A stretch of DNA of 37,600 nucleotides from a virus. This document shows, one piece after another, positions 6,776-35,970 of the stretch. Each line of letters begins with the position of its first letter. The first letter of the stretch is position 1. The stretch spans positions 1-37,600 of IMG/VR virus record IMGVR_UViG_3300020558_000015, one strand, 5' to 3'. A program made the translations under genes and the position numbers. Below the pieces are notes generated by a model that ran no database searches, was not told where the DNA came from, and worked only from the letters and a program-made list of their open reading frames with translations.

Positions 6776-6826
6776 ACTTATATTACCTCAGTTCACTGTC
6801 CCTGAGATACGGGTTTGGTATAAATA
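6776..6826 (-). promoter_or_regulatory. Leader of the collagen-like fibre gene with 8-bp hairpin
   Basis: The plus-strand arms 6784-6791 (TACCTCAG) and 6802-6809 (CTGAGATA) form an 8-bp stem with one G-U pair and a 10-nt loop in the minus-strand RNA. No U-run follows, so it is not a terminator. It ends 8 nt before the ATG at 6775 and buries a GAGG that could otherwise act as a weak ribosome site. A role in translation control is inference. Confidence 0.45.
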
Positions 6827-6827
6827 T
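6819..6827 (-). promoter_or_regulatory. Junction motif ATATTTATA (candidate promoter), copy 1
   Basis: The coding strand reads TAATATTTATA, with the TAA being the stop codon of the 116-residue gene. It lies 43 nt before the collagen-fibre start and is one of twelve junction copies. Confidence 0.5.
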
Positions 6828-7177
6828 TAAAGAGATATGCTACCTGTAATAGGATTTGTCCAAAAAGGTGTAGCTAAAAGTTCTAATATTTCTGGATAGA
6901 GATACTCAGGATATTCAGGTGAATATATTGATGGACGACCATATGTTCCTGCTTCTATTATATAACTTTGTGTTGTTTGTGTTTGTGGGTCATACCAACT
7001 TTGTGTGTAAGATGCTGTTACTACAGTGACAGGATATTTTACAAATGTTTCTGTTTCATCTATAGATAAACGTAAAGTATCAATAGATGATTCTTCAACT
7101 TGTGAAAAATCAATTGAGTTTGTTATTGATGTTGGTATCACTAACCAACGTTTATTAGGAAATATATTTTCTGTCAT
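6827..7177 (-). CDS. Hypothetical protein in fibre island
   Basis: 116 residues, acidic, with no signal peptide or membrane segment. It has a Tyr/Pro-rich stretch near residues 80-98 (YGRPSIYSPEYPEYLYPE) and ends NPITGSISL. I do not recognise the family. It lies between the last LamG-like protein and the collagen-like fibre, 11 bp after the former and 51 bp before the latter, so it is probably expressed with them and may be a small fibre-associated or assembly protein. The start is preceded by TATTTATTTGT and no Shine-Dalgarno sequence. Confidence 0.7.
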   Translation of the reverse strand: MTENIFPNKRWLVIPTSITNSIDFSQVEESSIDTLRLSIDETETFVKYPVTVVTASYTQSWYDPQTQTTQSYIIEAGTYGRPSIYSPEYPEYLYPEILELLATPFWTNPITGSISL

Positions 7178-7180
7178 ACA

Positions 7181-7189
7181 AATAAATAT
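7181..7189 (-). promoter_or_regulatory. Junction motif ATATTTATT, copy 2
   Basis: The coding strand reads TAATATTTATTTGTATG, joining the stop codon of the LamG-like gene to the next start, with only 3 nt between motif and ATG. The same 17-bp arrangement recurs at 28127-28143 with one base changed. Confidence 0.45.
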
Positions 7190-10234: not shown

Positions 10235-10408
10235 TTATATTTTTACTACTCTATATTTTCTTCCTGTTGTATCAGCATTTTGTAATTCAGTTGCTTTATC
10301 TTGAGCCTCAGGTTCATTATCATACTGATAAATTGGATCATCTGGGTTTAGTCTTGCTACCCAAATTGTATTACTTCCTGGGATAAATTGCATTTGTACT
10401 TGAAACAT
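10235..10408 (-). CDS. Small conserved-looking phage protein, 57 residues
   Basis: Translated by hand: ATG at 10406-10408, TAA at 10235-10237. It begins MFQVQMQFIPGSNTIWVARL, continues DPIYQYDNEPEAQDKATELQ, and ends GRKYRVVKI. It fills the gap between the 1885-residue fibre and the LamG proteins, with 12 bp and 5 bp of spacing, which supports a real gene. The pattern of a short beta strand, an acidic Tyr-rich patch and a basic end is like small proteins I associate with phage fibre loci, but I assign no function. No Shine-Dalgarno sequence; the upstream region is AT-only. Confidence 0.65.
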   Translation of the reverse strand: MFQVQMQFIPGSNTIWVARLNPDDPIYQYDNEPEAQDKATELQNADTTGRKYRVVKI

Positions 10409-10420: not shown

Positions 10421-13400
10421 TTATAAATAAGTTACTGTTGATTTTAATCTCCATCCTGATGTACCTGTAGTAATGTTAAATAAAACATCTGAACCAACCA
10501 CAGATACTGATGGTATTACACCTGATGTTGATCCAATATCTAATGTTGAATAATCAGTGTATTGAGCTGAAGATCCATTCCATACAGCTATTACTTCACC
10601 TGATCTAGCATTAGCACCATTTGACACAGTGTATTTGTAGAAAGCGGATGTGTAAGAACCTGTTGTTTGGGTAAATACATTATTTGAACCTACTACTGAT
10701 GATGCTACTGTATTGGTGTATGTTTGTGTGATACCAATAGTAAACCCATTATTGGCGTGTGACGCAGTAGCTGCATATGAAGCACTAGTTACACTTAATG
10801 AACTAGTTGATTGGTAATATAATTGACCTGTTGTTGTATCATATCCAACTACATTATTTTGATTTATGTTAGAAAGACTTGGAAATGTAATTGATCCAGT
10901 AGCAGTTAAATTATTAGTAAAGTTACCAGATCCAGATACATTTAATTTATATCCTGGATTATCTGTTGTGCCTAATAAGAAGTTACCCGCGTGGTAACTT
11001 TTGAATGATGAATCAGTTAAATATAATCCCCATCTGTTGGTAATTGTACCAGTAGCACCAATATTGGTAACATGACGTAATAGATAAAAGTTTGTGATTG
11101 TACCTGGGCCACCTGATGTTGAGCCAACGTTAGTTGTATTTAAAAGGAAATCATAATCTGTTATAGTAGATGCTTGTGAGCCTGCTGTATCTGCTACTTG
11201 TAAGTTTTCGTTACCCCATCTTGTAGTAGTGTAAAAGCCAGATCTTAATCTTGTTTGTGTATTAAAATGATACGCTATAGAATTACCACCAAGTGGGCTA
11301 GCTGTAGCTTCTCTATTAAAACTAGTAAATACTGTATATAATTGTCCAAGTGTTCCTAAATCATTGGCATCATTTGCAACAAGTAAGTTATTTAAAGCGA
11401 TCATTTGGAAAGGTACAGTACTAACCGTTGACCTAACATAATTTTGATTTCTAAAACCAACCATTAGTAAGTTAGATGTACCTCCTGCTGTTGTATAAAA
11501 TTCATTATTTGCGAAATAATTATATTGAAAACCAGCTGTTCCAGTACCAGGATAATTTATTGTATTACCTGAGCCAAAACTAGTAACATAATTAAATGTT
11601 CTGCCTACAGGATTAGAGAAACCAAGATAAGGAAGAAATCCATCACTGCTAATTACTCCACTAGAGTCAATAGAATAAGATGGGTTTGTTTTATTTATAC
11701 CAACAAAAGATCCACTATTAAAAATTGATCCTGTTGTTAAACTAGTGCCATCTTTCCATATTGCTGCATAGTATTGAGCACCACCTAATATATTAGATGA
11801 TGTTGTAGCATACGATGCTGTTGTAGCATTTACAGCATAAGATCCACTTAATGAATAAGAAGCACTTGTAGCGGCTAATGCATATGAAGCACTTGTAGCT
11901 ACTAAAGCATATGATGCTGTTGTAGCATTTAATGCGTATGAAGCTGAGGTGCTATTGTTGCTATAAGATGATGTTAAGGCGTATGATGCACTTGTAGCTG
12001 TTGCTGAATACGATGCACTTATAGCGTTTATAGTATAAGATGATGTTGTAGCGTAAGAAGCACTAATAGCATTTAATACATATGATGCACTAATAGCATT
12101 TAGTGCGTATGAAGCAGTCACAGCATATGAAGCAGTAGTAGCGGTAGCAGCATTTCCTGAGATAGAGGCACTAATAGATGATAAGTTTCTCCATTTAGCG
12201 GCAGTTGTATCATAAACTAATGCTTGACCATCTGTAGGTCCTGAGATTAATACATCAGATAATCCTGATAGTGTTTGTGTTATTATAGAACCTCCACCAC
12301 CTGATCCTCCTACTTGTCTAAATAAGCCTCCAGGTACTATTGTAAAGTCATTAACATCTGTAAATACACCATCACCGTTAATTACAATAGCACCCAGATA
12401 AATTGCATTAGCTGCTGTATTAGGGGCTTCTACAAATGGTTCTATATTAATATTAGCAATAGCTTCTGATTCGCTTGTATATACTGTATTACCATAGTAA
12501 ACAACTATTGCTTTTGTTACTGAATTAGGGAACCAGAATACTCTTTGGATAGTCCACCTTGATCCTACAGGTGAAGGTACTAATGTTAATACTCCGTTAT
12601 TTGAATATTGTGTTGGATCAATAGTTGCAAAACCAGCACCTGCGTTTGTTAAATAAACCCAGCTAGATCCTGATTGGTAATATCTAAATATTTTAGATAC
12701 ATTGGTGCCATTATCAACTGTATAATAAGGTTCGTTTGGATCTATAGTATAGTTAGAACCAGGAGAATATGCAGTACCACTTCCTACAACTAAACTACCT
12801 GTACTTGATCCACTAGGTGCTAAAGTATATCCTGATAATTTTAAAGGTCCAAATGCTCTATTAAATATATTTTGTTGTTGTTCAAATCCATATGCTACAG
12901 AAGGCTGTGTTTTAACACCATTAATTGTAGATTGGTTTTGGAATAATACGTTACCAATGTTTATTATATAGTCAAATTGACCATTACTAAATGGTGTTCC
13001 TTGAGCGTAAATGTTATTGGTTGAATCAATACCAACAAAGGCTTGTTGATAAGATGATGTTAAAGGAGCAATACTAGCTGATAAATTACCCCATTTAAGA
13101 TATTGTATTGTTGGGTATGGATCATCACTTAAACTTGCATTTAAGTTTACTATAATACCACTACCACTACTTACTTGATAAACAGTAGATGATTGGGTTG
13201 TAATTAAACCACCATGTAACAAACCAGTATATAAGTTACCTTCTAACCAACGTAAACGGGTTACGTTACTATACCCAGCACTATTTTGAGAAAAATATAA
13301 GTCGTTTGTAGATCCACTTACATAAATGTAAGATGCAGTTATTGAAGTATCTATATTTGTAGTTACAGGATCAAATCTATGATAACCTGTTTGTCTAATA

Positions 13401-16078: not shown

Positions 16079-16180
16079 AGTATATTACAAATTTTAACTG
16101 TGGTTAGATACATACACTTATGCCGTGTATATGCCTACTTCCTTTCGGCCAACAGTATATTTGTAATAAATATGAAAAAA
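16079..16180 (-). promoter_or_regulatory. Structured leader of the 1885-residue fibre gene
   Basis: This 102-bp gap holds nested complementary segments. Outer arms 16083-16092 (TATTACAAAT) and 16159-16168 (ATTTGTAATA) are a perfect 10-bp inverted repeat. Inside, CTGTTGG and CCACAG can pair with one bulge. CCGAAAGG forms a short GNRA-capped stem. ATATACAC pairs with GTGTATGT (one G-U) around a 7-nt loop. The 3' outer arm ends 4 nt before the ATG at 16078, so folding could hide the start. It could be an RNA switch or a protein-binding inverted repeat. No match to a known riboswitch recognised. Confidence 0.45.
16165..16173 (-). promoter_or_regulatory. Junction motif ATATTTATT, copy 4
   Basis: The coding strand reads TTCATATTTATTACAAATATAC, 86 nt before the fibre start. 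It overlaps the first outer arm of the structured leader, so promoter and inverted repeat share bases. Confidence 0.5.
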
Positions 16181-20165: not shown

Positions 20166-20169
20166 AATA

Positions 20170-21830: not shown

Positions 21831-21839
21831 TATAAATAT
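21831..21839 (-). promoter_or_regulatory. Junction motif ATATTTATA, copy 5
   Basis: Sits directly after the PhoH-like stop (TAATAATATTTATATTAG on the coding strand), 20 nt before the neck protein start. No other signal in the gap. Confidence 0.5.
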
Positions 21840-22524: not shown

Positions 22525-22533
22525 TATAAATAT
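22525..22533 (-). promoter_or_regulatory. Junction motif ATATTTATA, copy 6, directly after a terminator
   Basis: The coding strand reads TTTCATATTTATAGC, 10 nt after the stem of the capsid-gene terminator and 14 nt before the PhoH-like start. This is one of three terminator-motif pairs, the best support for promoter activity. Confidence 0.6.
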
Positions 22534-22543
22534 GAAAGAAAAA

Positions 22544-22563
22544 ACCCGAGCTTGCGCTCGGGT
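22544..22563 (-). terminator. Rho-independent terminator after the major capsid gene
   Basis: An 8-bp GC-rich perfect stem, ACCCGAGC with GCTCGGGT around a TTGC loop. On the minus strand it is followed by a TTTTTTCTTTC run. It lies 27 nt after the capsid stop codon. A shorter T-run on the other side means it could also act on plus-strand transcripts. Confidence 0.85.
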
Positions 22564-22589
22564 CTTTCTTTAACTCTAAGGGTTATTTA

Positions 22590-24257: not shown

Positions 24258-24286
24258 TTTGAATGAATTTTTGTTTTTTAAATTGT

Positions 24287-25624: not shown

Positions 25625-25633
25625 CTGAATTTT

Positions 25634-25638: not shown

Positions 25639-25643
25639 TTTTG

Positions 25644-25712
25644 ATTGCTTATTAGTAGGGGAAGCAATATAAGATTAAAAACGTTAAATTAATGAGATAT
25701 TGGAGATCTCAT
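25644..25712 (-). promoter_or_regulatory. Two small hairpins in the scaffold-gene leader
   Basis: Plus-strand arms 25644-25650 (ATTGCTT) with 25662-25668 (AAGCAAT), and 25692-25698 (ATGAGAT) with 25706-25712 (ATCTCAT), form two 7-bp stems. Neither is followed by a U-run. They lie between the junction motif and the Shine-Dalgarno site and may stabilise the mRNA 5' end or tune translation. Confidence 0.4.
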
Positions 25713-25724
25713 ATGTGGGATGTT

Positions 25725-25733
25725 CATAAATAT
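25725..25733 (-). promoter_or_regulatory. Junction motif ATATTTATG, copy 7, after a terminator
   Basis: The coding strand reads CACATATTTATGAAC, 29 nt after the protease-gene terminator stem and 100 nt before the scaffold start. Here a promoter reading gives a long leader containing the two hairpins. Confidence 0.55.
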
Positions 25734-25762
25734 GTGAAAAGTGCTCAAAGCGATAAAAATGA

Positions 25763-25786
25763 AACCCAGCCTTACGGGGCTGGGTT
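25763..25786 (-). terminator. Rho-independent terminator after the prohead protease gene
   Basis: A 9-bp stem, AACCCAGCC with GGCTGGGTT around TTACGG (plus strand). On the minus strand a TTTCATTTTT run follows. It lies 31 nt after the gp21 stop and separates the terminase-to-protease unit from the scaffold-capsid unit. Confidence 0.85.
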
Positions 25787-25817
25787 CAGAGCTATAATAC
25801 TGAGACTATAGCGGGGC

Positions 25818-26447: not shown

Positions 26448-28129
26448 TATCCTTGGGTTCCTGGTTTAGCTAATACAGCTGCTTTCTTTGTTAATATTTG
26501 TGCTAAAGCTTTTTCAGCGGCTTCTTCGTCTTTTTCTATTCTAGCCATAGCTGGATCTTCTTCTTTTAAAGCTTTCTTTAAAGCAGCTTTTAATGCTTCT
26601 TTAATTTTAGAATGCTTATCTTCACCTTCCATAAAGAAAGAAGATGTTATTTTTCTATCAGATGGAGCTTTAGAGTTGAATAATTCAATAGCTTTATCAA
26701 CACCAATTTGCTTACCTAACATCTTTAATTTACTATTCATAGCTGTTCCACGATCATAAGCACGTGGATCATCGCTCATTTCATAATACCAGTCATACTT
26801 AGACATTAATGAATTAAATTCTTCTTCAGCATTCATTTGTCCTTTCATTTTGTCAAATGAAGTACCTAAGTCAACACCACCCATGAATGAACCTTCTTTA
26901 ACATTCTTACTGTTATATTTATCAGCAAATGCTTTAGCATCAGCTTCTTTATCGAATGTTTTTATTTCACCATCTTGAGTTGTATAAACTTCGAATTTAC
27001 CATCCACTTTCATTACCTTAGCTTTGTCATGTGGATCTTTTGAAGCTTCTTCTAATCCTTCTTTAATAGATTTTAATTTATCAGCGTCAACAGTGATCAT
27101 AACATAATCACCTGCTGCTTCAATATCACCGCCAATCTTATCTATAATTTTAACAAAAGCATGGTCTGGTCCTAAAACATCTCTCCAGTTATCATCAGTA
27201 ATACCTTCTTCACCAAATTCATCCTCTATTCTATCCATATCAAATTCAAAATCTAAAGAAAAACTTACCTTACCATCTTTCTCTACAAATCCACTATAGT
27301 CACCACTGTCAGCTGATATATGTATTTGATTATCATCTTGTGTAACTTCTAATCCTTCTTTAATATTACCTTTATCAGATACTATTTTATAATCGTAGTT
27401 GTTATATGGTTCAAAGTCATCAAAGTTAGTTTGAGATATAAAATCTTCTTTACTAAGATCTGTATCTCCATTATCAAAAGCTATTTGCCAATGATGAGCT
27501 AAAGCAGCTTTTTTAGCTTCTTCTTCAGAACTAAAATATTCAACATCCACATCTTCTAAATCACCTGATGAGGGATCATAATGATATACTTTTAATATTA
27601 CCTCATTAATAAGATTCTCTTTAATGGTTTTTTCAGAGCCAGTTACACCTTTATCAGGCATTACTTTAACACCTTTAGGTTTTTTCTTACCTGCTTCTTT
27701 TTTACCTAATGTATCTTGTACATTAGCTTTAGCATCTTTCTTTAATTCTTTCTTTAAATAACCATCAGCTTTAGCTTGCATACCTGGTTTGTCTGTTTCA
27801 GGAGCTTCAAACTTATAAGGTGATTGATCTTGGTTAAGTAAAGTAGTATAGAAGTTAACATCTTTAGCTAAGTTCTTCAATACAATTGATTTAGCTTTTT
27901 CTAAAGATTCATTACTATAGTCATCCATTTGCTCTAGTTCATATTGAAGACCCATACGGTATTCATACGGGTTAGCAACGTCTATAGATAATTCTTTAAC
28001 TTCTTTTTTCTTTTTACCCTCAGTTAATGTTGTTCTTTTAACGCCGTATACTGAGTCATTATAATTAATTTCGTTAATTAAACCAGCGATAAGTTTAAGT
28101 CTTTCTATTTCGTTGATTGGTTTTTTCAT
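26447..28129 (-). CDS. Large prohead core / internal head protein
   Basis: 560 residues, strongly charged and rich in Lys, Asp and Glu. Low-complexity Lys runs (KKEAGKKKPKG) alternate with small folded-looking segments (VILKVYHYDPSSGDLEDVDVEYF, IHISADSGDYSGFVEKDGKVSF, FEVYTTQDGEIKTFDKEADA). Sites of the [ILV]-x-E-[GAIV] type recur: LINEIN, LTEGK, LINEVI, IKEGLE, VKEGS, IKEAL. That pattern fits a core protein cut by gp21 into pieces. It is coupled to gp21 by a one-base TAATG overlap and lies among the head-core genes. T4 has no clear counterpart of this size; function is inferred from composition, sites and context. Confidence 0.65.
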   Translation of the reverse strand: MKKPINEIERLKLIAGLINEINYNDSVYGVKRTTLTEGKKKKEVKELSIDVANPYEYRMGLQYELEQMDDYSNESLEKAKSIVLKNLAKDVNFYTTLLNQDQSPYKFEAPETDKPGMQAKADGYLKKELKKDAKANVQDTLGKKEAGKKKPKGVKVMPDKGVTGSEKTIKENLINEVILKVYHYDPSSGDLEDVDVEYFSSEEEAKKAALAHHWQIAFDNGDTDLSKEDFISQTNFDDFEPYNNYDYKIVSDKGNIKEGLEVTQDDNQIHISADSGDYSGFVEKDGKVSFSLDFEFDMDRIEDEFGEEGITDDNWRDVLGPDHAFVKIIDKIGGDIEAAGDYVMITVDADKLKSIKEGLEEASKDPHDKAKVMKVDGKFEVYTTQDGEIKTFDKEADAKAFADKYNSKNVKEGSFMGGVDLGTSFDKMKGQMNAEEEFNSLMSKYDWYYEMSDDPRAYDRGTAMNSKLKMLGKQIGVDKAIELFNSKAPSDRKITSSFFMEGEDKHSKIKEALKAALKKALKEEDPAMARIEKDEEAAEKALAQILTKKAAVLAKPGTQG

Positions 28130-28132
28130 ACT

Positions 28133-28141
28133 AATAAATAT
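28133..28141 (-). promoter_or_regulatory. Junction motif ATATTTATT, copy 8
   Basis: The coding strand reads TAATATTTATTAGTATG. TAA is the stop of the 41-residue gene and ATG the start of the next; only 3 nt separate motif and start. At this distance it cannot be a normal promoter for that ATG. Confidence 0.45.
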
Positions 28142-28266
28142 TAACGGCCCTGACCACGATATGCTTTTGGGCGAGGGCTATGTTTGTTATATGATTTTTT
28201 AGCGTTACCGCCTTTACGTTTACCAAATGTAACTTTGCGGCTTTCGCCTCTTATTGCTTTTGCCAT
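28141..28266 (-). CDS. Small, highly basic protein, 41 residues
   Basis: Translated by hand: ATG at 28264-28266, TAA at 28141-28143. It has 8 Lys and 6 Arg among 41 residues and almost no acidic ones. Segments include AIRGESRKVTFGKRKGG, NAKKSYNKHSPRPKAYRGQGR. Tight spacing (2 bp before, 11 bp after) and its place in the head-core operon support a real gene. The composition suits nucleic-acid binding or neutralising the acidic core. T4 also has small core proteins here (gp67, gp68), but I cannot show homology. Codon usage is slightly more GC-rich than its neighbours. Confidence 0.75.
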   Translation of the reverse strand: MAKAIRGESRKVTFGKRKGGNAKKSYNKHSPRPKAYRGQGR

Positions 28267-28268
28267 AA

Positions 28269-29126
28269 TTAATATCCTAAACTTTTAATTGTATCTTTAA
28301 CAAATATAGCAGCTTGTGCTACAGGGTAGTCAAATTTTTTAGCTACACCTTTTAAAAAGCGTAATACTAATTTATCACCTTCTGGATTTTTACCACCCAT
28401 AGCTTCATCCATATTAGTGTCTTTAATTTTCTCTATTTTATTTTGACACCAGTCAATAACTTCTTGTAAGTATTCAATTTGATCTCTCTTACTATCAGTT
28501 CCATGCATAAGATCATCTTCAATATCAGCGAAAATATCTTCACCTTCTTTTACTGGTTTTTTAGTTTCATTCATTTCAAGTTCAACACCTAAATCTTCAA
28601 CTAAGTCTTTTAATTCTTTAAGAGCTTGTACTAAACCTATTTTTTCTTGTGTTGGAATATTTGAACTAGTTGAGATATTGCGAGCTAAATTACTAACAAT
28701 TTCTTCAATTCTATCAATAGCCATAAGACTACCTTGACTTGCTTCTTCTACATTTTTCTCAGCTAAGAAATCCATCATTTTTTCTGCTTCAGCATCAGTA
28801 CGATCTTGTCCTAGATCTTCTTTAGCTAATTTTTCTTTTTCTTCTTTTTCACCAGCGGCTTTACCTTTCTCATATTCATAAGCAGCTTCACCTTCACCTA
28901 AATGTGACCAAATTTCTTTAGCTGTTTCAGCATCAATCAATTTCCAGCCTTCACCTTGTTTAATTACTTCAGCTTTAGCTTGTTCTAATGAGAAAGGACC
29001 AATTGGTTCTTCTAATCCTTCTTCATCATGAACATAATATTGTTGCTCTGGATTTTCTCTTAATTTAGAATAAGCACCTAATTTGTTTTCAACTAGGAAT
29101 TGTTTCATGTCAAAATTATCTGCCAT
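28269..29126 (-). CDS. Head-core protein with capsid-targeting-like N-terminus
   Basis: 285 residues, acidic. The start MADNFDMKQFLVENKLG nearly matches that of the 322-residue protein at 34975 (MADNFDLRKFITEAKLK) and resembles, as I recall it, the T4 internal-protein capsid-targeting sequence (MKTYQEFIAEA), which gp21 cuts after the Glu. The likely cut here is FLVE/NK. A short domain follows (YYVHDEEGLEEPIGPFSLEQAKAEVIKQG, similar to GYF-2-like 'ExGPFS' segments), then charged helices and LGVELEMNETKKPVKEGEDIF. The C-terminal 45 residues (LVLRFLKGVAKKFDYPVAQA) look folded. It lies 1 bp after the preceding core gene. Internal head protein is the best inference. Confidence 0.6.
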   Translation of the reverse strand: MADNFDMKQFLVENKLGAYSKLRENPEQQYYVHDEEGLEEPIGPFSLEQAKAEVIKQGEGWKLIDAETAKEIWSHLGEGEAAYEYEKGKAAGEKEEKEKLAKEDLGQDRTDAEAEKMMDFLAEKNVEEASQGSLMAIDRIEEIVSNLARNISTSSNIPTQEKIGLVQALKELKDLVEDLGVELEMNETKKPVKEGEDIFADIEDDLMHGTDSKRDQIEYLQEVIDWCQNKIEKIKDTNMDEAMGGKNPEGDKLVLRFLKGVAKKFDYPVAQAAIFVKDTIKSLGY

Positions 29127-29127
29127 T

Positions 29128-29775
29128 TTATTTTAGTTTTGTAGATTTTAAAAATAATGATTTTGCACTCTCTTTAATTTGTTGGAATGCATTTTCAGTA
29201 TATTTTTTATATTTTAAATCTTCACCTTCACTTAATTCACTTTTTAAACGATCAACGTATTCAAATATACGATTGATTTCGTTCATTTTTCTTTTTATTT
29301 GTTTAACTGCTTGATGGAATTGATCTGGTTTAGAACGCATTTTAGTTTCATTTCTAAACTGAGCGTATCCTTCATTTAAGCTAACTGTTTTTTTAACAAT
29401 TTCAATAGCATCAGTTGGTTTTAAAGCTCCCATTTCAACTGCTTTAACAAGTACTTTAACAGCATCTTCTTCAGCACCTAATTGTGCTAACATACCTGCT
29501 AAAGACTCATATTCACCTGCTTCCCATAGTTCTTTATAGTCAATTGCTTTTGAAGAACGATTTGGTTTAGATGGAGCATTAGTAAAACCAAAATGAGACA
29601 CAGCATAGTTATCTTTTACTTTACCAGCTGCTAGTTGTGGGGCATCTTCTTTTACTTTTTTCTTAAAAGCATATTTTGTAGCTACGCCCATACCAACACC
29701 TGGAGTTACAGAAGCACCGGTTCCTGTGGCCGATGTTTCTTTTTTAAGTTTAATTCCTAATTTTTTCTTATCCAT
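29128..29775 (-). CDS. Head-core protein sharing a TGTGxxxTPGxG motif with the capsid protein
   Basis: 215 residues, basic. Residues 16-31 read SATGTGASVTPGVGMG, closely paralleling SNTGTGGTFTPGTGEQ just after the predicted cleavage site of the major capsid protein. The middle (ELWEAGEYESLAGMLAQLGAEEDAVKVLVKAV) is helical. After that come QFRNETKMRSKPDQFHQAVKQIKRKMNEIN and a long helix ending KSLFLKSTKLK. No enzyme motif. It overlaps the upstream gene by 8 bp and leaves 1 bp to the next, so all are cotranscribed. Probably a core or capsid-interior component. Confidence 0.6.
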   Translation of the reverse strand: MDKKKLGIKLKKETSATGTGASVTPGVGMGVATKYAFKKKVKEDAPQLAAGKVKDNYAVSHFGFTNAPSKPNRSSKAIDYKELWEAGEYESLAGMLAQLGAEEDAVKVLVKAVEMGALKPTDAIEIVKKTVSLNEGYAQFRNETKMRSKPDQFHQAVKQIKRKMNEINRIFEYVDRLKSELSEGEDLKYKKYTENAFQQIKESAKSLFLKSTKLK

Positions 29776-30622
29776 TTACTTTCTTAATTTCCTCAGCTAG
29801 TTGCTGATATTGAAGTAATGCTACTAAATGTTCATCTTTTACAGACGACTTGTTAGATATTGGCTTTATCAACGTTATAACTTCGTTTAACTTAATTTCA
29901 GTTGTTTTGTCATTAACTTGTTTAACTAAATCAGTTAACTCGGTTTTAACCTTATTAAGGTTCTCGTTGATATATGTTTTAAGGTGTTCAGGATTAGAAA
30001 TATTGTTAATGAATTCTTTAAGTACTAACTTTTGACGTGTACTTAATGTTGAGTATTTAGTGTTGAACTTCTCAATTAACATTTTATATGCTAATAAACG
30101 TACATTTTTATCTTCTTTAGCTAATACTTGTTCAACTTCGTTTTCTTTATTTTCAACTAAGGTTTTCTTAGTGATATGTTCCATTACAGTAAGTTTATTA
30201 AGCACTAATTGTTTAGGCTCAACAAACTTATTATCCATAGCAGATTCAAATAATGTGTAAGCGGCGGCTAATGTTTTATAGTTGTTAACTTTGACTTTGA
30301 AAAAGCTCTCAAGGTTATAATGCTTCTTAATTTCTTTAATTAAGTTGTATTTTTCCTTAAGTAATGTTTCTTTGTTTAATTTTTTAGCTAAGTCAACAGT
30401 AGTATTAACTAATGCTTCAGCTTTACCTTCACTTAAGCGTGGTGCTGTTAAAATAGTATGGTAGAGTTTATGCTCTTTTGCTATTTCATTACTGTGAAAA
30501 TATTTTTTCACAATCTTTACCGCCTTAGAATCAGTATTCGCCAATGTGTCTGATGCTATTTGACGCACTAATAGCTCAAATAATACACCAGTGTTGCGAA
30601 ATTTGTTATGTTTTATGCGCAT
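29768..30622 (-). CDS. Conserved-looking head-operon protein of unknown function
   Basis: 284 residues, Lys-rich and almost entirely helical. The start MRIKHNKFRNTGVLFELLVRQIASD is distinctive and I have seen similar openings in genes near the portal of T4-like environmental phages. The rest (AVKIVKKYFHSNEIAKEHKLYHTI, LLAYKMLIEKFNTKYSTLSTRQKLVLKEF, LNEVITLIKPISNKS) predicts a helical bundle. No signal peptide, membrane segment or catalytic motif. Its place directly after the portal and before the core proteins suggests head assembly. Function not assigned. Confidence 0.65.
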   Translation of the reverse strand: MRIKHNKFRNTGVLFELLVRQIASDTLANTDSKAVKIVKKYFHSNEIAKEHKLYHTILTAPRLSEGKAEALVNTTVDLAKKLNKETLLKEKYNLIKEIKKHYNLESFFKVKVNNYKTLAAAYTLFESAMDNKFVEPKQLVLNKLTVMEHITKKTLVENKENEVEQVLAKEDKNVRLLAYKMLIEKFNTKYSTLSTRQKLVLKEFINNISNPEHLKTYINENLNKVKTELTDLVKQVNDKTTEIKLNEVITLIKPISNKSSVKDEHLVALLQYQQLAEEIKKVNG

Positions 30623-30644
30623 AGTTTAGTATAATGATACTAAT

Positions 30645-30653
30645 TATAAATAT
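30645..30653 (-). promoter_or_regulatory. Junction motif ATATTTATA, copy 9
   Basis: The coding strand reads TACATATTTATAATTAG in the 36-bp gap after the portal gene, 22 nt before the next start. It also contains TATAAT on the coding strand, so a host sigma-type reading is possible here. Confidence 0.5.
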
Positions 30654-30658
30654 GTATA

Positions 30659-32548
30659 TTATTTGATCTCGTCGCGGATGTTGTTTTCATTCAGTAAATC
30701 ACTTTCAAATAAAGTTGTACGGCGATTTACTGGTAATCCATCAAACATTTTCTTGTTTTTAAGATATGTTTCTAATGCTAATGGTGATCCACCTTTCCAT
30801 TGAGTTTTTGCTAATGTATCTTCTTGGTCTACACCTGCTGTGCTATATGATTTAGTACCTAATCTATCTTTACCAAATGGATTATCTTGACGATTAATAT
30901 TTGATACTGAAGCCTCAGGACGGCCAACTAAGTGTACAGGTTCATTAGGATTTTTCTCGTTATATCCTGTTGGCACAGCTCCATCTTTTCTACCCTTACC
31001 ATAAGCGACAGCTAATTGGTGTGGTGTACCATATACCTGGCCTGATTCATCTGGGTCATTACCTTCACCTTCAATTTGAGCTAATCTAAACTTACGTTTT
31101 TTATCTTCAATAATTAAATCACGATATTCATCATATTGGTCTTGGCTGAAATGGAATAAGTTATCATAAATCCAATCAGTTGGTAATAAATTAGACTCCA
31201 TAATGTTACTTGCTAACTCAACTTTTTCTTTCATTAAGTTAACACGTTCTTGATCATAAATGATAGAAGGTGTAGTTAAGTTTAACTCAAAGTTGGTTAA
31301 CATTTCACCATCATATCCTTGAGTATATAAGTGTACTAAGGCAATCTTAGTTAATTCTGATAATAATATCTTTTGAATACGTTCTACTGTACGAGCAAAT
31401 CTAATATCTTCAGCGGCTAATGTAGCTTTACCAGTTAAGTCTTTTTCATAACCCATAAATGCTTTAGGTATCTTAAGAGCAGCGAATAACTTATCTCTTA
31501 AGTAAGCTACGTCTTCAATACCATTATATTCTAAACCTTTTGCTGTATCAATACGAGTTGATTGGTCGTTACCTCTTACAGGAATGTAAAAGTCTTCCAT
31601 CATGTTCATCATATTGTACTTAAGGTTATATTGGCCTGTTGTTGGATCTACAAAAGGTACTTTCTTAAGTTTTTGTACTGTTTTTTGCATGAATGCTTCT
31701 ACCTCATTTGGAGGAATAGCACCTACATTCATATAGAAAATACGTTTTTCAGGAGCACGAACAATACGATGAATTAACATCGCATCTTCCATTAATATCA
31801 TTTGTTTGAATATCTTACGGCCTGGCTCTAAATAACTTCTACCATAAGGTAAATAGTTAACATCACTTATTAATCTAAAGTGAGCCATTTCATAGTTTTC
31901 AAAGTAGATATCTGATGTTGATGTACCTAAAGCGTACTGTGTTTGAGGAGTAGTGATACCAGATACTGATGTAGGATCATATTTAAATCTTACATAAGTA
32001 GGATTTTTAGGATTAGTACCTTCCTCTCTGATAATTGAGTAAGCGGAGAATGGTATAACATTATATACGCCAAATTTCTCAGCTATTTCTAATTTAAGAT
32101 AAAAGTCACCATACTTACACATGTTACGAGCCCAACTCCATAAGTTGAATTCAATATTTAACACATCATAGAATAAGTTGTATAATATCTTTTGAATATT
32201 TTCATCACTAGAGCGAACATGGAGCATTTCACCATGTTCATTTTTTAAAGTACACTCATCGGCTATAATATCAAGTGCTGAGGCTACAATAGCGTCAGTA
32301 TCCATTGATTCATAGTCGGTATAAAGTTGTACCCTTAATGTCTGGTAGTTGTAAACATTGTTTACATTATAAATACCAGCACCAGATGTGGTATAAATTT
32401 TAGTGAATCGGTCTACAAGTGCATTAGTCTGTAAAGTACCTAATGACTGTATTCGATCTGTATCAATTACTCTCAACTCATCCCCACCTACATTACGAAT
32501 AACAACGTCTGAAGAGAATAATCGTTTTAGATTGTCAAATAATCCCAT
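30659..32548 (-). CDS. gp20: Portal protein, gp20-like
   Basis: 629 residues (T4 gp20 is 524). Landmarks: MGLFDNLKRLF start, YTDYESMDTDAIVASALDIIAD near 76-97, WARNMCKYGDFYLKLEI near 139-155, HRIVRAPEKRIFYMNVG near 260-276, and the QSTRIDTAKGLEYNGIEDVAYLRDKL region, all as in T4-type portals. The dodecameric portal forms the head vertex through which terminase moves DNA and where the neck later attaches. The C-terminal 120 residues, beginning near 505 (EGEGNDPDESGQVYG), are polar and probably an extension. It follows the terminase by 30 bp. No Shine-Dalgarno sequence before the ATG. Confidence 0.95.
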   Translation of the reverse strand: MGLFDNLKRLFSSDVVIRNVGGDELRVIDTDRIQSLGTLQTNALVDRFTKIYTTSGAGIYNVNNVYNYQTLRVQLYTDYESMDTDAIVASALDIIADECTLKNEHGEMLHVRSSDENIQKILYNLFYDVLNIEFNLWSWARNMCKYGDFYLKLEIAEKFGVYNVIPFSAYSIIREEGTNPKNPTYVRFKYDPTSVSGITTPQTQYALGTSTSDIYFENYEMAHFRLISDVNYLPYGRSYLEPGRKIFKQMILMEDAMLIHRIVRAPEKRIFYMNVGAIPPNEVEAFMQKTVQKLKKVPFVDPTTGQYNLKYNMMNMMEDFYIPVRGNDQSTRIDTAKGLEYNGIEDVAYLRDKLFAALKIPKAFMGYEKDLTGKATLAAEDIRFARTVERIQKILLSELTKIALVHLYTQGYDGEMLTNFELNLTTPSIIYDQERVNLMKEKVELASNIMESNLLPTDWIYDNLFHFSQDQYDEYRDLIIEDKKRKFRLAQIEGEGNDPDESGQVYGTPHQLAVAYGKGRKDGAVPTGYNEKNPNEPVHLVGRPEASVSNINRQDNPFGKDRLGTKSYSTAGVDQEDTLAKTQWKGGSPLALETYLKNKKMFDGLPVNRRTTLFESDLLNENNIRDEIK

Positions 32549-32565
32549 AGTATCTTAGTATATGT

Positions 32566-32574
32566 TATAAATAT
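32566..32574 (-). promoter_or_regulatory. Junction motif ATATTTATA, copy 10 (near-palindromic)
   Basis: The coding strand reads TAGATAAATATTTATAAC after the terminase stop, 17 nt before the portal start. This copy also contains GATAAATA on the coding strand, so it could work in either direction. Confidence 0.5.
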
Positions 32575-32578
32575 TTAT

Positions 32579-34171
32579 CTAAACCAACCAGCTAATATCT
32601 TCCATTTGTCCTCTACCATTATCCATTTGCCAAGGATTATTTTGTTGCGGACTATGTGGGGTATAAAAGCCACTTGGTCCGGTATTATATGAAATTTTTC
32701 CTATACCTCCAAGTGAAGCGCGAGTTAAGTCCATACCTGTTTGAGAGAATTTTAAAGCTGTATCACGTAAAAACATACCAATACCAAAAGACATTACAAG
32801 GTCATCATTATATCCATCGTTGGCTTGCGCTTTACCATTTTTCCATACAAATGTTCTTAATTCCTCTAATGTGCGACGTGATTGAATAACACAAGCTCTA
32901 TCTCTCATATAAGCCTCTAATTTGGCTACTACAAGTGGTCTAGTTTTGAGTGAGTTAGTGAAACCTGGTATTAAATTATTGTTATTTCTATTTATAAAGT
33001 TATCCATTGTTATATTAGCTGTATCTGATTTAGATGAGTAATATAAGTTTTGGTAGCCTCGTTCTATAATGGTTTGTATTGTGTCCCATCCTATGTTTGC
33101 ATTTTCAACAACTAATAAAGCATTATTCCATTCAGTAGCAATTGATACAAGCATATGTCCGTAGTCACGAGTACCAACTTGTCCTTTATACTCTTCTACT
33201 TGTTTGGCCTCAGCTATATCAATAACATGACAAGCAGAATAGTCTTTACCATCACCTCTAGCTACGTCAGCAACAACCATATATTGTTTTGTATAATCTG
33301 GAAATTCCCAACGCCATAAGTTACCATCAAATCCACCTTTTGAAATAGGATCTGCTTGATATGTTGATATATAAAAATTTAAAATATCAGGTTCAACAAC
33401 TGTATCACCTGAAGTTGTAAAGTCACAATCACATTCTTGAGCGGCGTTTCTAATTCCTAAGATAGCATCTTGTTCATCTCTCCATTTTTGAGTTCGTTCT
33501 GGGTGTACTGTCCAAGGTAATTTTATAGATACAAATCCGTTTTTTCCTTCTTCACCACCAATAAATGTTCTATGGAACCAATTACCAGTACCAAATGGTG
33601 TTGATATAGCGATACATTGACCACCAGTGGCTAAGGTTTGTTGAGCAGAGGCAAATATCTCATCTATACCTTCAATGAATGCGGCCTCATCTAGTAACAG
33701 TAATGATACTGCTTCAGATCGACCTGCGTCGCCAGTAGCACCAATTGCTTTTATCTGAGATCCATTTGCTAGTTTTAAACTTAGTTTATTGTTTTCTAAA
33801 GCATTTATTTTAAGCCAGCTGGGTAGGTTATCATAAGCAAATTTTACTTTGGTAACCATGTTTTTAGCAGTTTCTTGCTTAGTGGCTATACAAAGTACGT
33901 TTTTGTCTTTGTTAAATAACATTAACCAAAGTGAATAAGCTGACACTAGAGTAGAGATACCTAACTGTCTTGACTTGTTAACTATACTGTAACGATTCTT
34001 TTTAAACTGATGTAATACACCTTCCTGAAATGGATATAAATTAAATTGGATACGACCACGTTGTGGGTGTTGAATCCAATAATATTTTTTCATAAAATAA
34101 ACAGGATCAGTAGCACATTTAACATATTCCTGTTTAATAATATCTTTAATATTCTGTTGTTGATCGCTCAT
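32579..34171 (-). CDS. gp17: Large terminase subunit, gp17-like
   Basis: 530 residues (T4 gp17 is 610). The ATPase part has a deviant Walker A, KSRQLGIST at 66-74, with Ile where T4 has the P-loop Lys; Lys66 may substitute, as in lambda-type terminases. Walker B is LLLLDEAAF at 157-165 and the coupling motif AISTPFG lies at 188-194. The RNase H-like nuclease shows VVADVARGDGKD (Asp302), LLVVENANIG (Glu356) and YNDDLVMSF (Asp456/457). It cuts concatemeric DNA and drives packaging through the portal. First gene of its unit, 13 nt after a junction motif and a terminator. No small terminase gene is visible in the window. Confidence 0.95.
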   Translation of the reverse strand: MSDQQQNIKDIIKQEYVKCATDPVYFMKKYYWIQHPQRGRIQFNLYPFQEGVLHQFKKNRYSIVNKSRQLGISTLVSAYSLWLMLFNKDKNVLCIATKQETAKNMVTKVKFAYDNLPSWLKINALENNKLSLKLANGSQIKAIGATGDAGRSEAVSLLLLDEAAFIEGIDEIFASAQQTLATGGQCIAISTPFGTGNWFHRTFIGGEEGKNGFVSIKLPWTVHPERTQKWRDEQDAILGIRNAAQECDCDFTTSGDTVVEPDILNFYISTYQADPISKGGFDGNLWRWEFPDYTKQYMVVADVARGDGKDYSACHVIDIAEAKQVEEYKGQVGTRDYGHMLVSIATEWNNALLVVENANIGWDTIQTIIERGYQNLYYSSKSDTANITMDNFINRNNNNLIPGFTNSLKTRPLVVAKLEAYMRDRACVIQSRRTLEELRTFVWKNGKAQANDGYNDDLVMSFGIGMFLRDTALKFSQTGMDLTRASLGGIGKISYNTGPSGFYTPHSPQQNNPWQMDNGRGQMEDISWLV

Positions 34172-34184
34172 GCAACTGTTTGTA

Positions 34185-34193
34185 TATAAATAT
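34185..34193 (-). promoter_or_regulatory. Junction motif ATATTTATA, copy 11, directly after a terminator
   Basis: The coding strand reads CTTTTATATATTTATATAC; the terminator stem ends 6 nt earlier and the terminase ATG is 13 nt later. If it is a promoter -10 element, the terminase mRNA would have a leader of only a few nucleotides. Confidence 0.6.
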
Positions 34194-34199
34194 ATAAAA

Positions 34200-34226
34200 G
34201 AGGCCTAACCTTACCGGTTAAGCCTC
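34200..34226 (-). terminator. Rho-independent terminator before the terminase gene
   Basis: An 11-bp stem with one G-U pair: GAGGCTTAACC with GGTTAGGCCTC around GGTAA on the minus strand, followed by TTTTATATA. It lies 22 nt after the stop of the 130-residue gene and ends the upstream unit. Confidence 0.8.
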
Positions 34227-34248
34227 AGTGCATGGGATTGCAAGGATC

Positions 34249-34641
34249 TTATTTAGTTAAATATAAATAGCCTAAACCGCCTATAACAGCAGTTCCTAAT
34301 AGTTTAGTGAAAACTAATTTAGCTTTTAATTTCTTATTATCTTTTCTTAATTGATCAACCCATAATTGTTGAGCATCAAATTTTAACTGTTCATTTTTGA
34401 TACGTTCTTCATATAACATACCTTTTTGAACATGTCCTGATATAATACTATCTTTTAATGTTACTTTCTTTTCTAATAATGTAATATTTTCATTACATAA
34501 TTTTAACTCAGCCTTAGCACTATCACCACTAACTAAATCTTTAACAATTAATTTAGCTACAGGAGATGGTATTTTAATAGTATCTTGTTGAGCGTAACCA
34601 AATATAGGTAAAAACGCTAATATAATTAAAATGTATTTCAT
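34249..34641 (-). CDS. Exported coiled-coil protein with C-terminal membrane anchor (possible spanin partner)
   Basis: 130 residues. Residues 1-19 (MKYILIILAFLPIFGYAQQ) are a type I signal peptide ending in the AQ/QD style common in Bacteroidetes. A charged coiled coil follows at about 42-108, then a hydrophobic segment at 110-128 and a Lys end. There is no lipobox Cys, so it is not a classical outer-membrane spanin. It starts on the stop of the gene before it (TAATG, one-base overlap), as in tightly coupled lysis pairs. Together they could span the periplasm. Alternatives: an envelope protein for superinfection exclusion, or a virion injection protein. Confidence 0.5.
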   Translation of the reverse strand: MKYILIILAFLPIFGYAQQDTIKIPSPVAKLIVKDLVSGDSAKAELKLCNENITLLEKKVTLKDSIISGHVQKGMLYEERIKNEQLKFDAQQLWVDQLRKDNKKLKAKLVFTKLLGTAVIGGLGYLYLTK

Positions 34642-35018
34642 TAGTATCCGTATCTAGCTTTAAAAAATGAATCTACCTGTGTTGGAGTATATTGCTCAGC
34701 TTGTTGACCTACTTCATGGTAATACTCACGAATAATAGTTGTTTTTTCCTTAATGTTATCTACTTGAAAGTCAATTTGATCAACTTCAGCCTCATAAACA
34801 TTAATTGTACTATCAATTTGTTGTTGATGCTCAATTAATTGCTTATTAACTGCTGTTAATGAGTCAATAGTAGCCTTAATATCAGCAGGCATACCTTGCT
34901 TTGATGTAACTAATAGGATAAATAAGTATAAAAATATAACCCCACCTATCACAATAAATAACTTTCCGATGGTTTTAGAGTTCTTCTTCACCATCAATTT
35001 CAATGTCTGTATCATCAA
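34641..35018 (-). CDS. Membrane-anchored coiled-coil protein, Rz-like inner spanin candidate
   Basis: 125 residues. A basic N-terminus precedes one membrane helix at about 20-38 (LFIVIGGVIFLYLFILLVT), then a periplasmic coiled coil (DIKATIDSLTAVNKQLIEHQ, VDNIKEKTTIIREYYHEVG) and a short tail VDSFFKARYGY. Size, type II topology and coiled coil match inner spanins. The start at 35018 overlaps the preceding gene by 44 bp; a second ATG at codon 9 (34994) would reduce this to 20 bp and keeps the whole membrane segment. No holin or endolysin is in the window, so the lysis role is inference. Confidence 0.5.
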   Translation of the reverse strand: MMIQTLKLMVKKNSKTIGKLFIVIGGVIFLYLFILLVTSKQGMPADIKATIDSLTAVNKQLIEHQQQIDSTINVYEAEVDQIDFQVDNIKEKTTIIREYYHEVGQQAEQYTPTQVDSFFKARYGY

Positions 35019-35943
35019 TACCTAATTTTTTAAATTCATCTTCTTCACTATCTTTTCTCTTAGATCCAATAGTTGGAAGTTTATCTTCGCCTAATGATTT
35101 AAGGATCATTTTCATTACTCCTTTAGTATTAGTAGCTCCGAATTTATATTTGTCAAGATCATTTAATACTTTAACATAAGCATTATAATCTTCATCTTTT
35201 AAAACTTCAATTTTGTCTACAAGACGTTTTACTAAGTCAGGTAAACCAGCTTTAGCTGCTTCTTTAGATTTAGCTTGAGCTGCTTTAAAGTCAGTACTTG
35301 ATAAACCACCATCTTCAGCTTCTTTAACTGTACGACCTGTTTTAATATTTGATTGAGCATATTGTTTAATGATACGATCAATTAAATCACTATTATCAAC
35401 AAACCATTCACCAGCTTTAGAACCAGCGGCAGTTGATTTTGGTGCTTTAAGTTTAGTAATATCTTTTTCAGATGGTTCTTCATCCCCTGTTTCTGGTTTT
35501 GCTTTTTTAGATTTAAGTTTACCTTTACCTACAAACAAATCTTCAGCATCATCAGCGCCACCAAATATATCACCTTCACCTGGTTCTTCATCAGCAGCTT
35601 TTTCTGGTTTAACAGTTGTGGCTTTTAAGAGTTGATTACGAATATCAGGAGTGAAAGACCAGTTAATACCAGGAGCTGAATTTTTTTCAATATCACTTTT
35701 TAGCAATTCAACTTCCATTGGATCAATACTCTCATCTTTTGCTTTTTTAACAAAGTAATTAACTACTTGTTGTTTTCTATCTGTTTTAAAGTTGCTAGGA
35801 TTAGCAATTCTATCTTCAATTTGTGGAAAGTCTGGATTGAGTTTATATTTTTCTTTAGCGATACGTGCCATTTCCTTTACAGGAACTTTAATTTTAAGTT
35901 TCGCTTCAGTAATAAATTTTCTAAGATCAAAATTGTCTGCCAT
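34975..35943 (-). CDS. Charged protein with capsid-targeting-like N-terminus
   Basis: 322 residues, Lys/Asp/Glu-rich. The first 16 residues (MADNFDLRKFITEAKL) match those of the core protein at 28269-29126 and contain FITE/A, a good gp21 cleavage site resembling T4's FLTE/A in gp23. Residues 25-105 include a compact helical segment (FKTDRKQQVVNYFVKKAKDE, INWSFTPDIRNQLLKA). Low-complexity acidic and Lys-rich blocks follow, then a helical stretch (DLVKRLVDKIEVLKDEDYNAYVKVLNDLDKYKF) and an acidic tail (DTDIEIDGEEEL). It lies in a different unit from the other core proteins. I propose an encapsidated internal protein; this is inference. Confidence 0.6.
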   Translation of the reverse strand: MADNFDLRKFITEAKLKIKVPVKEMARIAKEKYKLNPDFPQIEDRIANPSNFKTDRKQQVVNYFVKKAKDESIDPMEVELLKSDIEKNSAPGINWSFTPDIRNQLLKATTVKPEKAADEEPGEGDIFGGADDAEDLFVGKGKLKSKKAKPETGDEEPSEKDITKLKAPKSTAAGSKAGEWFVDNSDLIDRIIKQYAQSNIKTGRTVKEAEDGGLSSTDFKAAQAKSKEAAKAGLPDLVKRLVDKIEVLKDEDYNAYVKVLNDLDKYKFGATNTKGVMKMILKSLGEDKLPTIGSKRKDSEEDEFKKLGIDDTDIEIDGEEEL

Positions 35944-35961
35944 GTTTAATTGTTATGTGTT

Positions 35962-35970
35962 AATAAATAT
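35962..35970 (-). promoter_or_regulatory. Junction motif ATATTTATT, copy 12
   Basis: The coding strand reads TAAAATATTTATTAACAC, starting at the stop codon of the kinase-like gene, 18 nt before the start of the 322-residue gene. Confidence 0.5.

What the first reader, a model, noticed from the sequence alone, without database searches (positions are those of the whole stretch)
6819..35970. Twelve gene junctions carry ATATTTATN, the reverse complement of the T4 late promoter
On the plus strand, NATAAATAT occurs at 6819, 7181, 16165, 21831, 22525, 25725, 28133, 30645, 32566, 34185 and 35962, with a shorter TATAAATA at 10422. Seven of the twelve contain the exact T4 late consensus TATAAATA, but pointing opposite to every gene. 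All lie in the roughly 1 kb of non-coding DNA or touch a stop codon; I noticed only about three like it in coding DNA (near 2084, 14604, 34262). Either a divergent late sigma factor reads ATATTTAT on the coding strand, or there are antisense promoters at most junctions, or it is an RNA-level signal such as a processing site.
Basis: partly seen in the sequence, partly recalled or inferred. Interest (0 to 1): 0.8.

Follow-up and report, generated by a model that had tools for sequence, protein, structure and literature searches.

The report
Rewritten late promoters in T4-like phages
A family of viruses related to phage T4, which probably infects Bacteroidetes-type bacteria, marks the start of its late gene transcripts with a changed version of T4's late promoter, probably read by the phage's own divergent sigma factor, so the motif points with the genes and not against them.

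Summary
The motif is real and far from chance. Eleven of 21 junctions of 5 nt or more carry ATATTTAT on the coding strand; shuffled junctions average 0.46. It is not a backwards T4 promoter. ATATTTAT is the commonest junction 8-mer across related phages, 353 copies against 12 reversed; 73 of 80 contigs favour the coding strand, 0 the other, 7 have none. It follows terminators (80 of 98 junctions, never only before), has no conserved upstream element, and is followed 12 nt on by a conserved purine, the likely transcription start. Consensus: [A/c]TATTTATA-N3-A(+1). In that register it equals T4's TATAAATA except AA→TT at -9/-8, two bases that T4 gp55 flips into pockets (PMC7892883). These phages carry an unannotated protein whose predicted fold best matches T4 gp55; the motif lies within 80 nt downstream of it in 160 of 160 loci. 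Best reading: a reprogrammed T4-type late promoter/sigma pair. In immuto the early genes use a different promoter. Start sites and sigma activity are inferred; sequence homology to gp55 is weak. No sigma gene was found in the window, a fragment.

The parts
35963..35970 (-). late promoter element ATATTTAT; inferred +1 at 35958 (A), upstream of ORF 34975-35943
34186..34193 (-). late promoter element; inferred +1 at 34181 (A); follows terminator 34226-34200; upstream of terminase large subunit 32579-34171
34200..34226 (-). terminator-like hairpin ending the previous transcription unit
32567..32574 (-). late promoter element (palindromic copy); base at the inferred +1 (32562) is T; upstream of portal 30659-32548
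30646..30653 (-). late promoter element; inferred +1 at 30641 (A); upstream of ORF 29768-30622
28134..28141 (-). late promoter element; inferred +1 at 28129 is the A of the next start codon (leaderless), ORF 26447-28129
25762..25787 (-). terminator-like hairpin after the head protease gene 25818-26447
25726..25733 (-). late promoter element; inferred +1 at 25721 (A); upstream of ORF 24287-25624 and the major capsid gene 22590-24257
22539..22568 (-). terminator-like hairpin after the major capsid gene
22526..22533 (-). late promoter element; inferred +1 at 22521 (A); upstream of the PhoH-like gene 21842-22510; [A/C]TATTTAT found after the capsid gene in 66 of 72 relatives
21832..21839 (-). late promoter element; inferred +1 at 21827 (G); upstream of ORF 20170-21810
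16166..16173 (-). late promoter element; inferred +1 at 16161 (A); upstream of ORF 10421-16078
10422..10430 (-). weak variant (TTATTTATA, T in the first position) overlapping the stop of ORF 10421-16078, upstream of the 57-aa ORF 10235-10408; does not match the core
7182..7189 (-). late promoter element; inferred +1 at 7177 is the A of the next start codon (leaderless), ORF 6827-7177
6820..6827 (-). late promoter element; inferred +1 at 6815 (A); upstream of the collagen-repeat fibre-like gene 1667-6775

Best explanation
ATATTTAT is the -10-like element of a single-element late promoter that points with the genes. Its consensus in the clade is [A/c]TATTTATA-N3-A(+1). Each copy opens a late transcription unit, often after the terminator of the one before; where the start codon is 12 or 13 nt from the motif's first base, the mRNA is leaderless or nearly so. 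The element is read by a phage-encoded, gp55-like sigma factor, the family of immuto gp118 and its homologue in the contig whose capsid is 85% identical to the window's, which directs host RNA polymerase to late genes. In immuto the sigma gene lies downstream of an early-type promoter, with no terminator found between. It is a T4-type late promoter/sigma pair whose recognition sequence has changed, mainly AA to TT at -9/-8. Shown by sequence: position, strand, conservation, spacing, order after terminators, linkage to the sigma gene. Inferred: transcription initiation, the +1, and that this protein reads the motif.
For: Window: 11 of 21 junctions, shuffle maximum 4 in 2,000; a purine at the inferred +1 in 10 of 11. 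Relatives, pooled from 73 sources: top 8-mer in junctions, 353 against 12 for the reverse complement, found by an open count of all 8-mers. A 22-nt weight matrix seeded with the motif fits 340 of 534 junctions, 17 on the reverse strand and 25 of 534 random windows. Sense exceeds antisense in 73 contigs, the reverse in 0, none in 7. Of 98 junctions with a terminator-like hairpin the motif follows it in 80, precedes it only in 0 and is absent in 18. In window 20,000-37,600 six terminator-like sites are on the coding strand; the three in junctions are each followed by a motif, the other three lie inside genes. No conserved -35 element. Conserved purine at offset 12 (A 0.82, G 0.09, T 0.09, C 0.00); start codons at offset 12 or 13 in 46 of 302 sites and nearer in only 4. 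Cultured relative immuto: 14 ATATTTAT against 1 reversed in its third 50 kb, many just upstream of structural genes. In its first 100 kb another promoter, TTG-N20-TAT[A/C]TTTAG, stands at 17 of 17 sites with exactly 20 nt spacing, none in the rest of the genome. Candidate sigma: found in 8 of 10 records tried, one being immuto itself; best structural match of two models is T4 gp55, 7d7c_F, Z 9.7 and 9.9, the other listed rows being, by their titles, sigma factors or chains of sigma-RNA polymerase complexes; [A/C]TATTTAT within 80 nt downstream in 160 of 160 loci, 0 of 160 control windows inside the gene.
Against: Sequence evidence linking the candidate to gp55 is weak: hhalign E 0.2 and 0.37 with probabilities below 1%; no Pfam match above cut-off in four members, nor for T4 gp55 itself; phrog_1740 (sigma) in 6 and phrog_234 (late sigma) in 3 of 50 members at best E 0.011 and 0.026, among 20 weakly matched families of which several unrelated ones score as well or better. 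The immuto hit to phrog_234 (E 0.008) is of a kind that the same search also gives at E up to 1 in 7 of 14 control genomes. Z near 10 for helical proteins is not decisive, by the tool's own note. Foldseek alone had no PDB hit at E below 0.001. The window and three near-identical contigs gave no sigma gene. The jumbo phage LR756508 has a clear homologue of the sigma but almost no ATATTTAT in the part read, so the pairing is not universal. No T4-type clamp was found in 5 relatives. In 27 of 33 exactly leaderless cases the junction is one orthologous place. Ten of 21 window junctions lack the exact motif. Used on T4's own late region as a control, my junction count gave only 9 sense against 6 antisense TATAAATA, so the method is no perfect guide to direction there. 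There are no transcript data.
Confidence: 0.85

Rival explanations
1. Antisense T4-type late promoters (TATAAATA) sit at most junctions and drive transcription against the genes, silencing or regulating them.
For: Seven of the twelve window sites contain exact TATAAATA on the plus strand, and 206 of 302 sites in relatives do so on the antisense strand.
Against: The other 96 of 302 sites do not have the antisense T4 octamer, yet 89 of these 96 keep the purine at offset 12 on the coding strand, which an antisense promoter would not need. The fixed spacing to the sense start codon and the place after, never only before, coding-direction terminators in 80 of 98 junctions also have no reason under this reading. 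The T4 consensus is expected on the antisense strand of any ATATTTATA by near-palindromy.
Confidence: 0.04
2. An RNA-level signal: an mRNA processing site or stability element between genes.
For: Some sites touch stop codons and lie in short junctions; hairpins of 6 bp or more are over-represented downstream (42 of 302 against 17 expected in base shuffles).
Against: Hairpins are absent downstream in 260 of 302 sites. The motif lies beyond terminators, where the upstream transcript should mostly have ended. After the capsid gene the motif stays where the next start region looks different (sequences printed). No Rfam family matches the window.
Confidence: 0.05
3. It is a promoter, but read by the host housekeeping sigma or by another phage sigma, and gp118 has a different role.
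For: Sequence support for gp118 as gp55 is weak. RM378 carries a second, annotated sigma of another family. LR756508 has the gp118 family without the motif.
Against: Immuto early genes carry a distinct two-element promoter that fits the Bacteroidetes housekeeping consensus as I recall it, while the late motif has no conserved upstream element. gp118 folds best onto gp55 and the motif is next to its gene in 160 of 160 loci.
Confidence: 0.12

Closest known systems
T4 late promoter and its sigma gp55 (Escherichia phage T4)
   Same: Single -10-like element with no -35 element; likely start about 12 nt from the element's first base (T4: 13 nt from T-13); found at late gene junctions; probable phage sigma with the region-2 fold of gp55 (PDB 7d7c).
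   Different: Core [A/c]TATTTAT in place of TATAAATA; in the +1 register the change is AA to TT at -9/-8; in the low-scoring block aligned by hhalign gp55 H95 and T99 (the -9 and -8 contacts in PMC7892883) face F/Y and Q/G while Y97 is kept; no gp45-type clamp found; some mRNAs probably leaderless.
Cyanophage late promoter NATAAATA (S-PM2, Syn9) and Aeh1 late promoter CTAAATA
   Same: Variants of the T4 late element already known in T4-like phages (passages of PMC2984593 and PMC1524935); Aeh1 shares C at -12, as in the CTATTTAT form here.
   Different: Those keep the AAATA end; here the central AA is TT.
Flavobacterium phage immuto (NC_055915), genus Immutovirus
   Same: Closest cultured relative by capsid protein (55.8%); same motif in the same orientation; same sigma family.
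   Different: Uses CTATTTAT as well as ATATTTAT. I found no description of its promoters in print.
Rhodothermus phage RM378
   Same: Distant homologue of the sigma family (E 1e-9); junction motif TTATTTAA shares the TATTTA core and sits 6-13 nt before start codons in 16 of 22 listed sites.
   Different: First base T and last base A; many genes on both strands; carries another annotated sigma as well.

Membership tests
T4-type late promoter | -10-like element TATAAATA at -13 to -6 | tested here: not met
   Core is [A/c]TATTTAT; 5 of 7 shared bases in the +1 register, TT for AA at -9/-8 (T4 positions from PMC1524935, passage)
T4-type late promoter | no -35 element | tested here: met
   no column above 0.3 bit from -50 to -10 relative to the motif; a slight TTG excess, 64 against 39 of 302 in two windows, without sharp spacing
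T4-type late promoter | located upstream of late (structural) genes, in their direction | tested here: met
T4-type late promoter | drives late transcription in infected cells | not testable with these tools
   needs 5'-end mapping
gp55 sigma family (candidate: immuto gp118 and homologues) | sigma region 2 fold resembling gp55 | tested here: met
   7d7c_F is top of both VIA-align lists, Z 9.7 (122 aligned, 5.6 A) and 9.9 (118 aligned, 4.1 A), tied within 1 Z with other sigmas; models of pLDDT 77.7 and 76.3; fold similarity only
gp55 sigma family (candidate: immuto gp118 and homologues) | sequence homology to gp55 | tested here: inconclusive
   phrog_234 E 0.008 in immuto; hhalign E 0.2 and 0.37
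gp55 sigma family (candidate: immuto gp118 and homologues) | binds RNA polymerase and selects late promoters | not testable with these tools
   needs biochemistry
T4 late activation by clamp gp45 and gp33 | gp45-type sliding clamp encoded | tested here: inconclusive
   PF02916 found in T4 but in 0 of 5 relatives; a divergent clamp could be missed
T4 late activation by clamp gp45 and gp33 | gp33 co-activator encoded | not tested
   no search made

The most novel reading that the evidence does not exclude
A large, mostly uncultured T4-like phage clade has rewritten the code between late sigma and late promoter. The two bases that T4 gp55 flips at -9/-8 changed from AA to TT together with the residues that contact them, while the -12 contact stayed. 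The system makes leaderless late mRNAs and does without a T4-type clamp, and its TATTTA core reaches back to Rhodothermus phage RM378, so this may be an ancient second branch of T4-type late transcription in phages of the Bacteroidetes lineage.
Probability: 0.4. Interest if true: 0.75.

Novelty: new variant of a known kind. Interest (0 to 1): 0.62.

Why it matters
It gives a simple sequence rule for finding late transcription units in a large, poorly annotated group of phages. It also names a probable late sigma for hundreds of contigs, annotated as a hypothetical protein in immuto, and offers a natural specificity switch to test how gp55-type sigmas read DNA. The authors of PMC7029224 (passages seen) report that methods for finding middle and late promoters in cyanophages failed in pelagimyophages, so promoter variants in T4-like phages are a known gap.

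Tried and rejected
Whole-window counts of the motif are nearly unremarkable, so the case rests on junctions and strand. T4 gp55 as a direct protein query found nothing in immuto or RM378, and family phrog_12791 found nothing in them either, though it found T4's. The annotated RM378 sigma led to crAss-like, Rhizobium and Sinorhizobium phage sigmas and others, and immuto was not in the 20 of 33 rows listed. A profile of the candidate sigma found no PDB sequence at E up to 10. Plain Foldseek gave no PDB or viral match at E below 0.001, though sigma factors appear among the weak hits. Covariation between the first promoter base (A, C or rarely T) and sigma residues looks dominated by lineage and shows nothing. 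LR756511 gave no ATATTTAT in 38 junctions and no clear motif in 14 same-strand junctions. LR756508 showed AACTTAAA at 7 junctions, 0 reversed, in its structural region; with two more 50-kb pieces added it is no longer among the top words; left as a lead. In the immuto early region my first exact pattern for the host-type promoter (TTTG ending) hit 0 of 27 junctions; the sites end in TTTAG. A strict host-type search of the window found one coding-strand hit, inside a gene, and three on the other strand. A first count of 20 window junctions misplaced a small ORF; one search corrects it to 21. A TTG excess upstream of late sites (64 against 39 of 302) has no sharp spacing, so I do not read it as a -33 element. 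My note says 79 pooled sources; the scripts used 73 (the window, 70 contigs, one immuto piece, the Mel-JY01 piece); L017-L019, L049 and L066 were left out as near-copies, and L054, L070, L073, L085, L094 as short contigs (2.1 to 5.0 kb). One search listed 353 sites and kept 302 unique full-length ones for profiles and spacing; one search kept 534 of 616 junctions as non-redundant. A draft of this report said that the base after the motif speaks against antisense T4 promoters; that was wrong (A there makes the antisense octamer), and one search replaces it; I raised two rivals' odds by 0.01 and 0.02 and lowered my own by 0.01.
Full report
WHAT THE WINDOW IS. The window is a 37.6-kb virus record from a T4-like phage with its main genes all on the minus strand. 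It carries a terminase, portal, head protease, gp23-type capsid protein and PhoH-like protein. By capsid protein the closest cultured relative is Flavobacterium phage immuto (55.8% identity), followed by Microcystis phage Mel-JY01, an uncultured jumbo phage (LR756508) and Rhodothermus phage RM378. IMG/VR contigs with capsid identity up to 100% exist. The host of the window's virus is not known; a Bacteroidetes host is inferred from immuto.

THE OBSERVATION. On the coding strand each reads ATATTTAT. Of 21 junctions of at least 5 nt, 11 hold it; shuffling each junction with dinucleotides kept gives a mean of 0.455 and a maximum of 4 in 2,000. Of 11 junctions longer than 25 nt, 9 hold it. The whole-window count alone (14 against 8.9) would not have been convincing.

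DIRECTION. The decisive question is which strand matters. In immuto the third 50-kb piece has 14 ATATTTAT and 1 reversed copy with nearly all genes on the plus strand. Sites lie just before the terminase, tail sheath, tail tube and other genes (with the annotation). In a pooled set of 73 sources an open count of all 8-mers in junctions puts ATATTTAT first: 353 against 12 for its reverse complement. Contig by contig, 73 of 80 favour the coding strand, 0 the other, and 7 have none. In the Mel-JY01 piece it is 10 against 0 junctions. So the motif points with the genes. As a control, the same junction count on T4's late region ranks TATAAATA first, but with only 9 sense against 6 antisense junctions.

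PROMOTER ANATOMY. A weight matrix grown from the sites fits 340 of 534 non-redundant junctions, against 17 for the reverse strand and 25 of 534 random windows. The consensus is [A .89/C .11] T A T T T A T A(.71), then three loose bases, then A (.82) or G (.09). Upstream, from -50 to -10, no column is strongly conserved. Of 98 junctions with a terminator-like hairpin 80 have the motif after it, 0 only before it, and 18 have none. In window 20,000-37,600 six terminator-like sites are on the coding strand; the three in junctions are each followed by a motif, and three lie inside genes. After the capsid gene [A/C]TATTTAT is found in 66 of 72 relatives; in the 26 printed sequences a terminator-like hairpin precedes it where it occurs, also where the next start region looks different (by eye). 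Other junctions keep it less evenly: portal 56 of 56, terminase 34 of 49, protease 36 of 68, PhoH 36 of 51.

START SITE. The conserved purine 12 nt from the first base of the motif is the likely +1. In the window it is A in nine, G in one and T in one of 11 sites. Start codons lie 12 nt from the first base in 33 and 13 nt in 13 of 302 sites, and closer in only 4. Such mRNAs would be leaderless or nearly so; in the window these are 7182 and 28134. Caution: 27 of the 33 exact cases are one orthologous junction; the 46 cases at 12 or 13 nt fall into 13 gene families.

COMPARISON WITH T4. The T4 element TATAAATA spans -13 to -6 (PMC1524935, passage). My own look at ten T4 sites agrees with a start about 12-14 nt on, but is too small to fix the register. 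Setting +1 equal, the new element keeps A-12, T-11, A-10, T-7 and A-6 and differs by TT for AA at -9/-8. A rival register without the start site pairs TATTTATA with TATAAATA directly, again with two central changes. In the cryo-EM structure gp55 inserts A-12 (stacked on Y97), A-9 (N13, H95) and A-8 (T99) into pockets (PMC7892883, section 8). That two of these three flipped positions are the changed ones is inference, not a test.

THE SIGMA. Late sigma family phrog_234 hits immuto weakly at gp118 (E 0.008; the same family also gives hits at E up to 1 in 7 of 14 control genomes). It occurs in 8 of 10 records tried, immuto itself included, among them the 66-kb contig whose capsid is 85% identical to the window's. 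It was not found in the window or in its three nearest contigs, all of which may be fragments. Two AlphaFold models, one per lineage (pLDDT 77.7 and 76.3), have T4 gp55 as best structural match in the second-look lists (Z 9.7 and 9.9); the other listed rows are, by their titles, sigma factors or chains of sigma-RNA polymerase complexes, several within 1 Z of gp55 (that the RPSH, RPSB and RPSD models and the phage AR9 chain are sigma proteins is recalled). Sequence comparison stays weak. In the hhalign block the Tyr that stacks on A-12 is kept, while H95 and T99 face F/Y and Q/G; this rests on a low-scoring alignment. Within 80 nt after the sigma match [A/C]TATTTAT occurs in 160 of 160 loci (ATATTTAT itself in 101), and in 0 of 160 windows inside the gene. 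In immuto an early-type promoter stands at 76,216 before the sigma operon, no terminator-like hairpin was found between, and a late motif follows the sigma gene at 78,884.

TWO PROMOTER CLASSES. The first 100 kb of immuto carries TTG, exactly 20 nt, then TAT[A/C]TTTAG in 17 of 17 sites found by their common tail, 0 on the reverse strand and 0 in the rest of the genome. Many of these lie in the region of small genes at 60-76 kb. The form fits the Bacteroidetes housekeeping promoter TTG/TAnnTTTG as I recall it. So early and late classes differ.

DEPTH. RM378 holds a distant homologue of the sigma (E 1e-9) and a junction motif TTATTTAA, 11 against 2 in 55 same-strand junctions; 16 of 22 listed sites are 6-13 nt before a start codon. 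LR756508 holds a clear homologue (E 2e-63) but hardly any ATATTTAT in the parts read: sigma and motif do not always go together. This is the main result against a simple pairing.

PUBLISHED STATE. Searches of the held library found no description of this motif or of immuto's promoters. Only listings were seen, for the first 20 of 126, for 20 of 29, for 15 of 22. Passages of PMC7892883, PMC1524935, PMC2984593, PMC7029224, PMC2988020 and PMC3037559 were read, and section 8 of PMC7892883 in full. Variants of the late element in cyanophages and Aeh1 are known, so this is a new variant of a known kind.

VERDICT. Late promoters on the coding strand, very likely; read by a gp55-like phage sigma, likely. 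Not an antisense promoter, and not mainly an RNA signal.

Noticed in passing
L007 and L008 (immuto 22,094 to 76,216): Seventeen copies of a two-element promoter, TTG-N20-TAT[A/C]TTTAGGTA, only in the first 100 kb and mostly among small early-type genes; probably the host-type promoter.
   Followed up: partly
window 21811-21841, 30623-30658, 6776-6826: Inverted repeats follow the motif (for example TTAGTATCATTATACTAA); hairpins of 6 bp or more are over-represented downstream of the motif in relatives, 42 of 302 against 17 expected. Role unknown.
   Followed up: partly
L324, L325, L012 (RM378): TTATTTAA, then a few A-rich bases, then ATG at many junctions: a likely promoter class of RM378, 22 sites listed.
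   Followed up: partly
L233 (LR756508 structural region): AACTTAAA at 7 junctions, 0 reversed: possible late motif of this jumbo phage; not a top word when more of the genome is added.
   Followed up: partly
LR756511, 464,494-464,829: A frame matching the sigma profile holds one TAG; the phage may read TAG as an amino acid, or the gene is broken.
   Followed up: no
window 1667-6775: 1702-aa protein with collagen repeats and a C-terminal S74 chaperone domain, with a local G+C rise to 50%: probable tail fibre.
   Followed up: no
window 28141-28266: 41-aa Arg/Lys-rich ORF just before the strictly spaced leaderless junction; small head-region gene of unknown role.
   Followed up: no
loci L114-L176: The promoter after the sigma gene starts with C (CTATTTAT) in most of this group and with A in the window's lineage.
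   Followed up: partly
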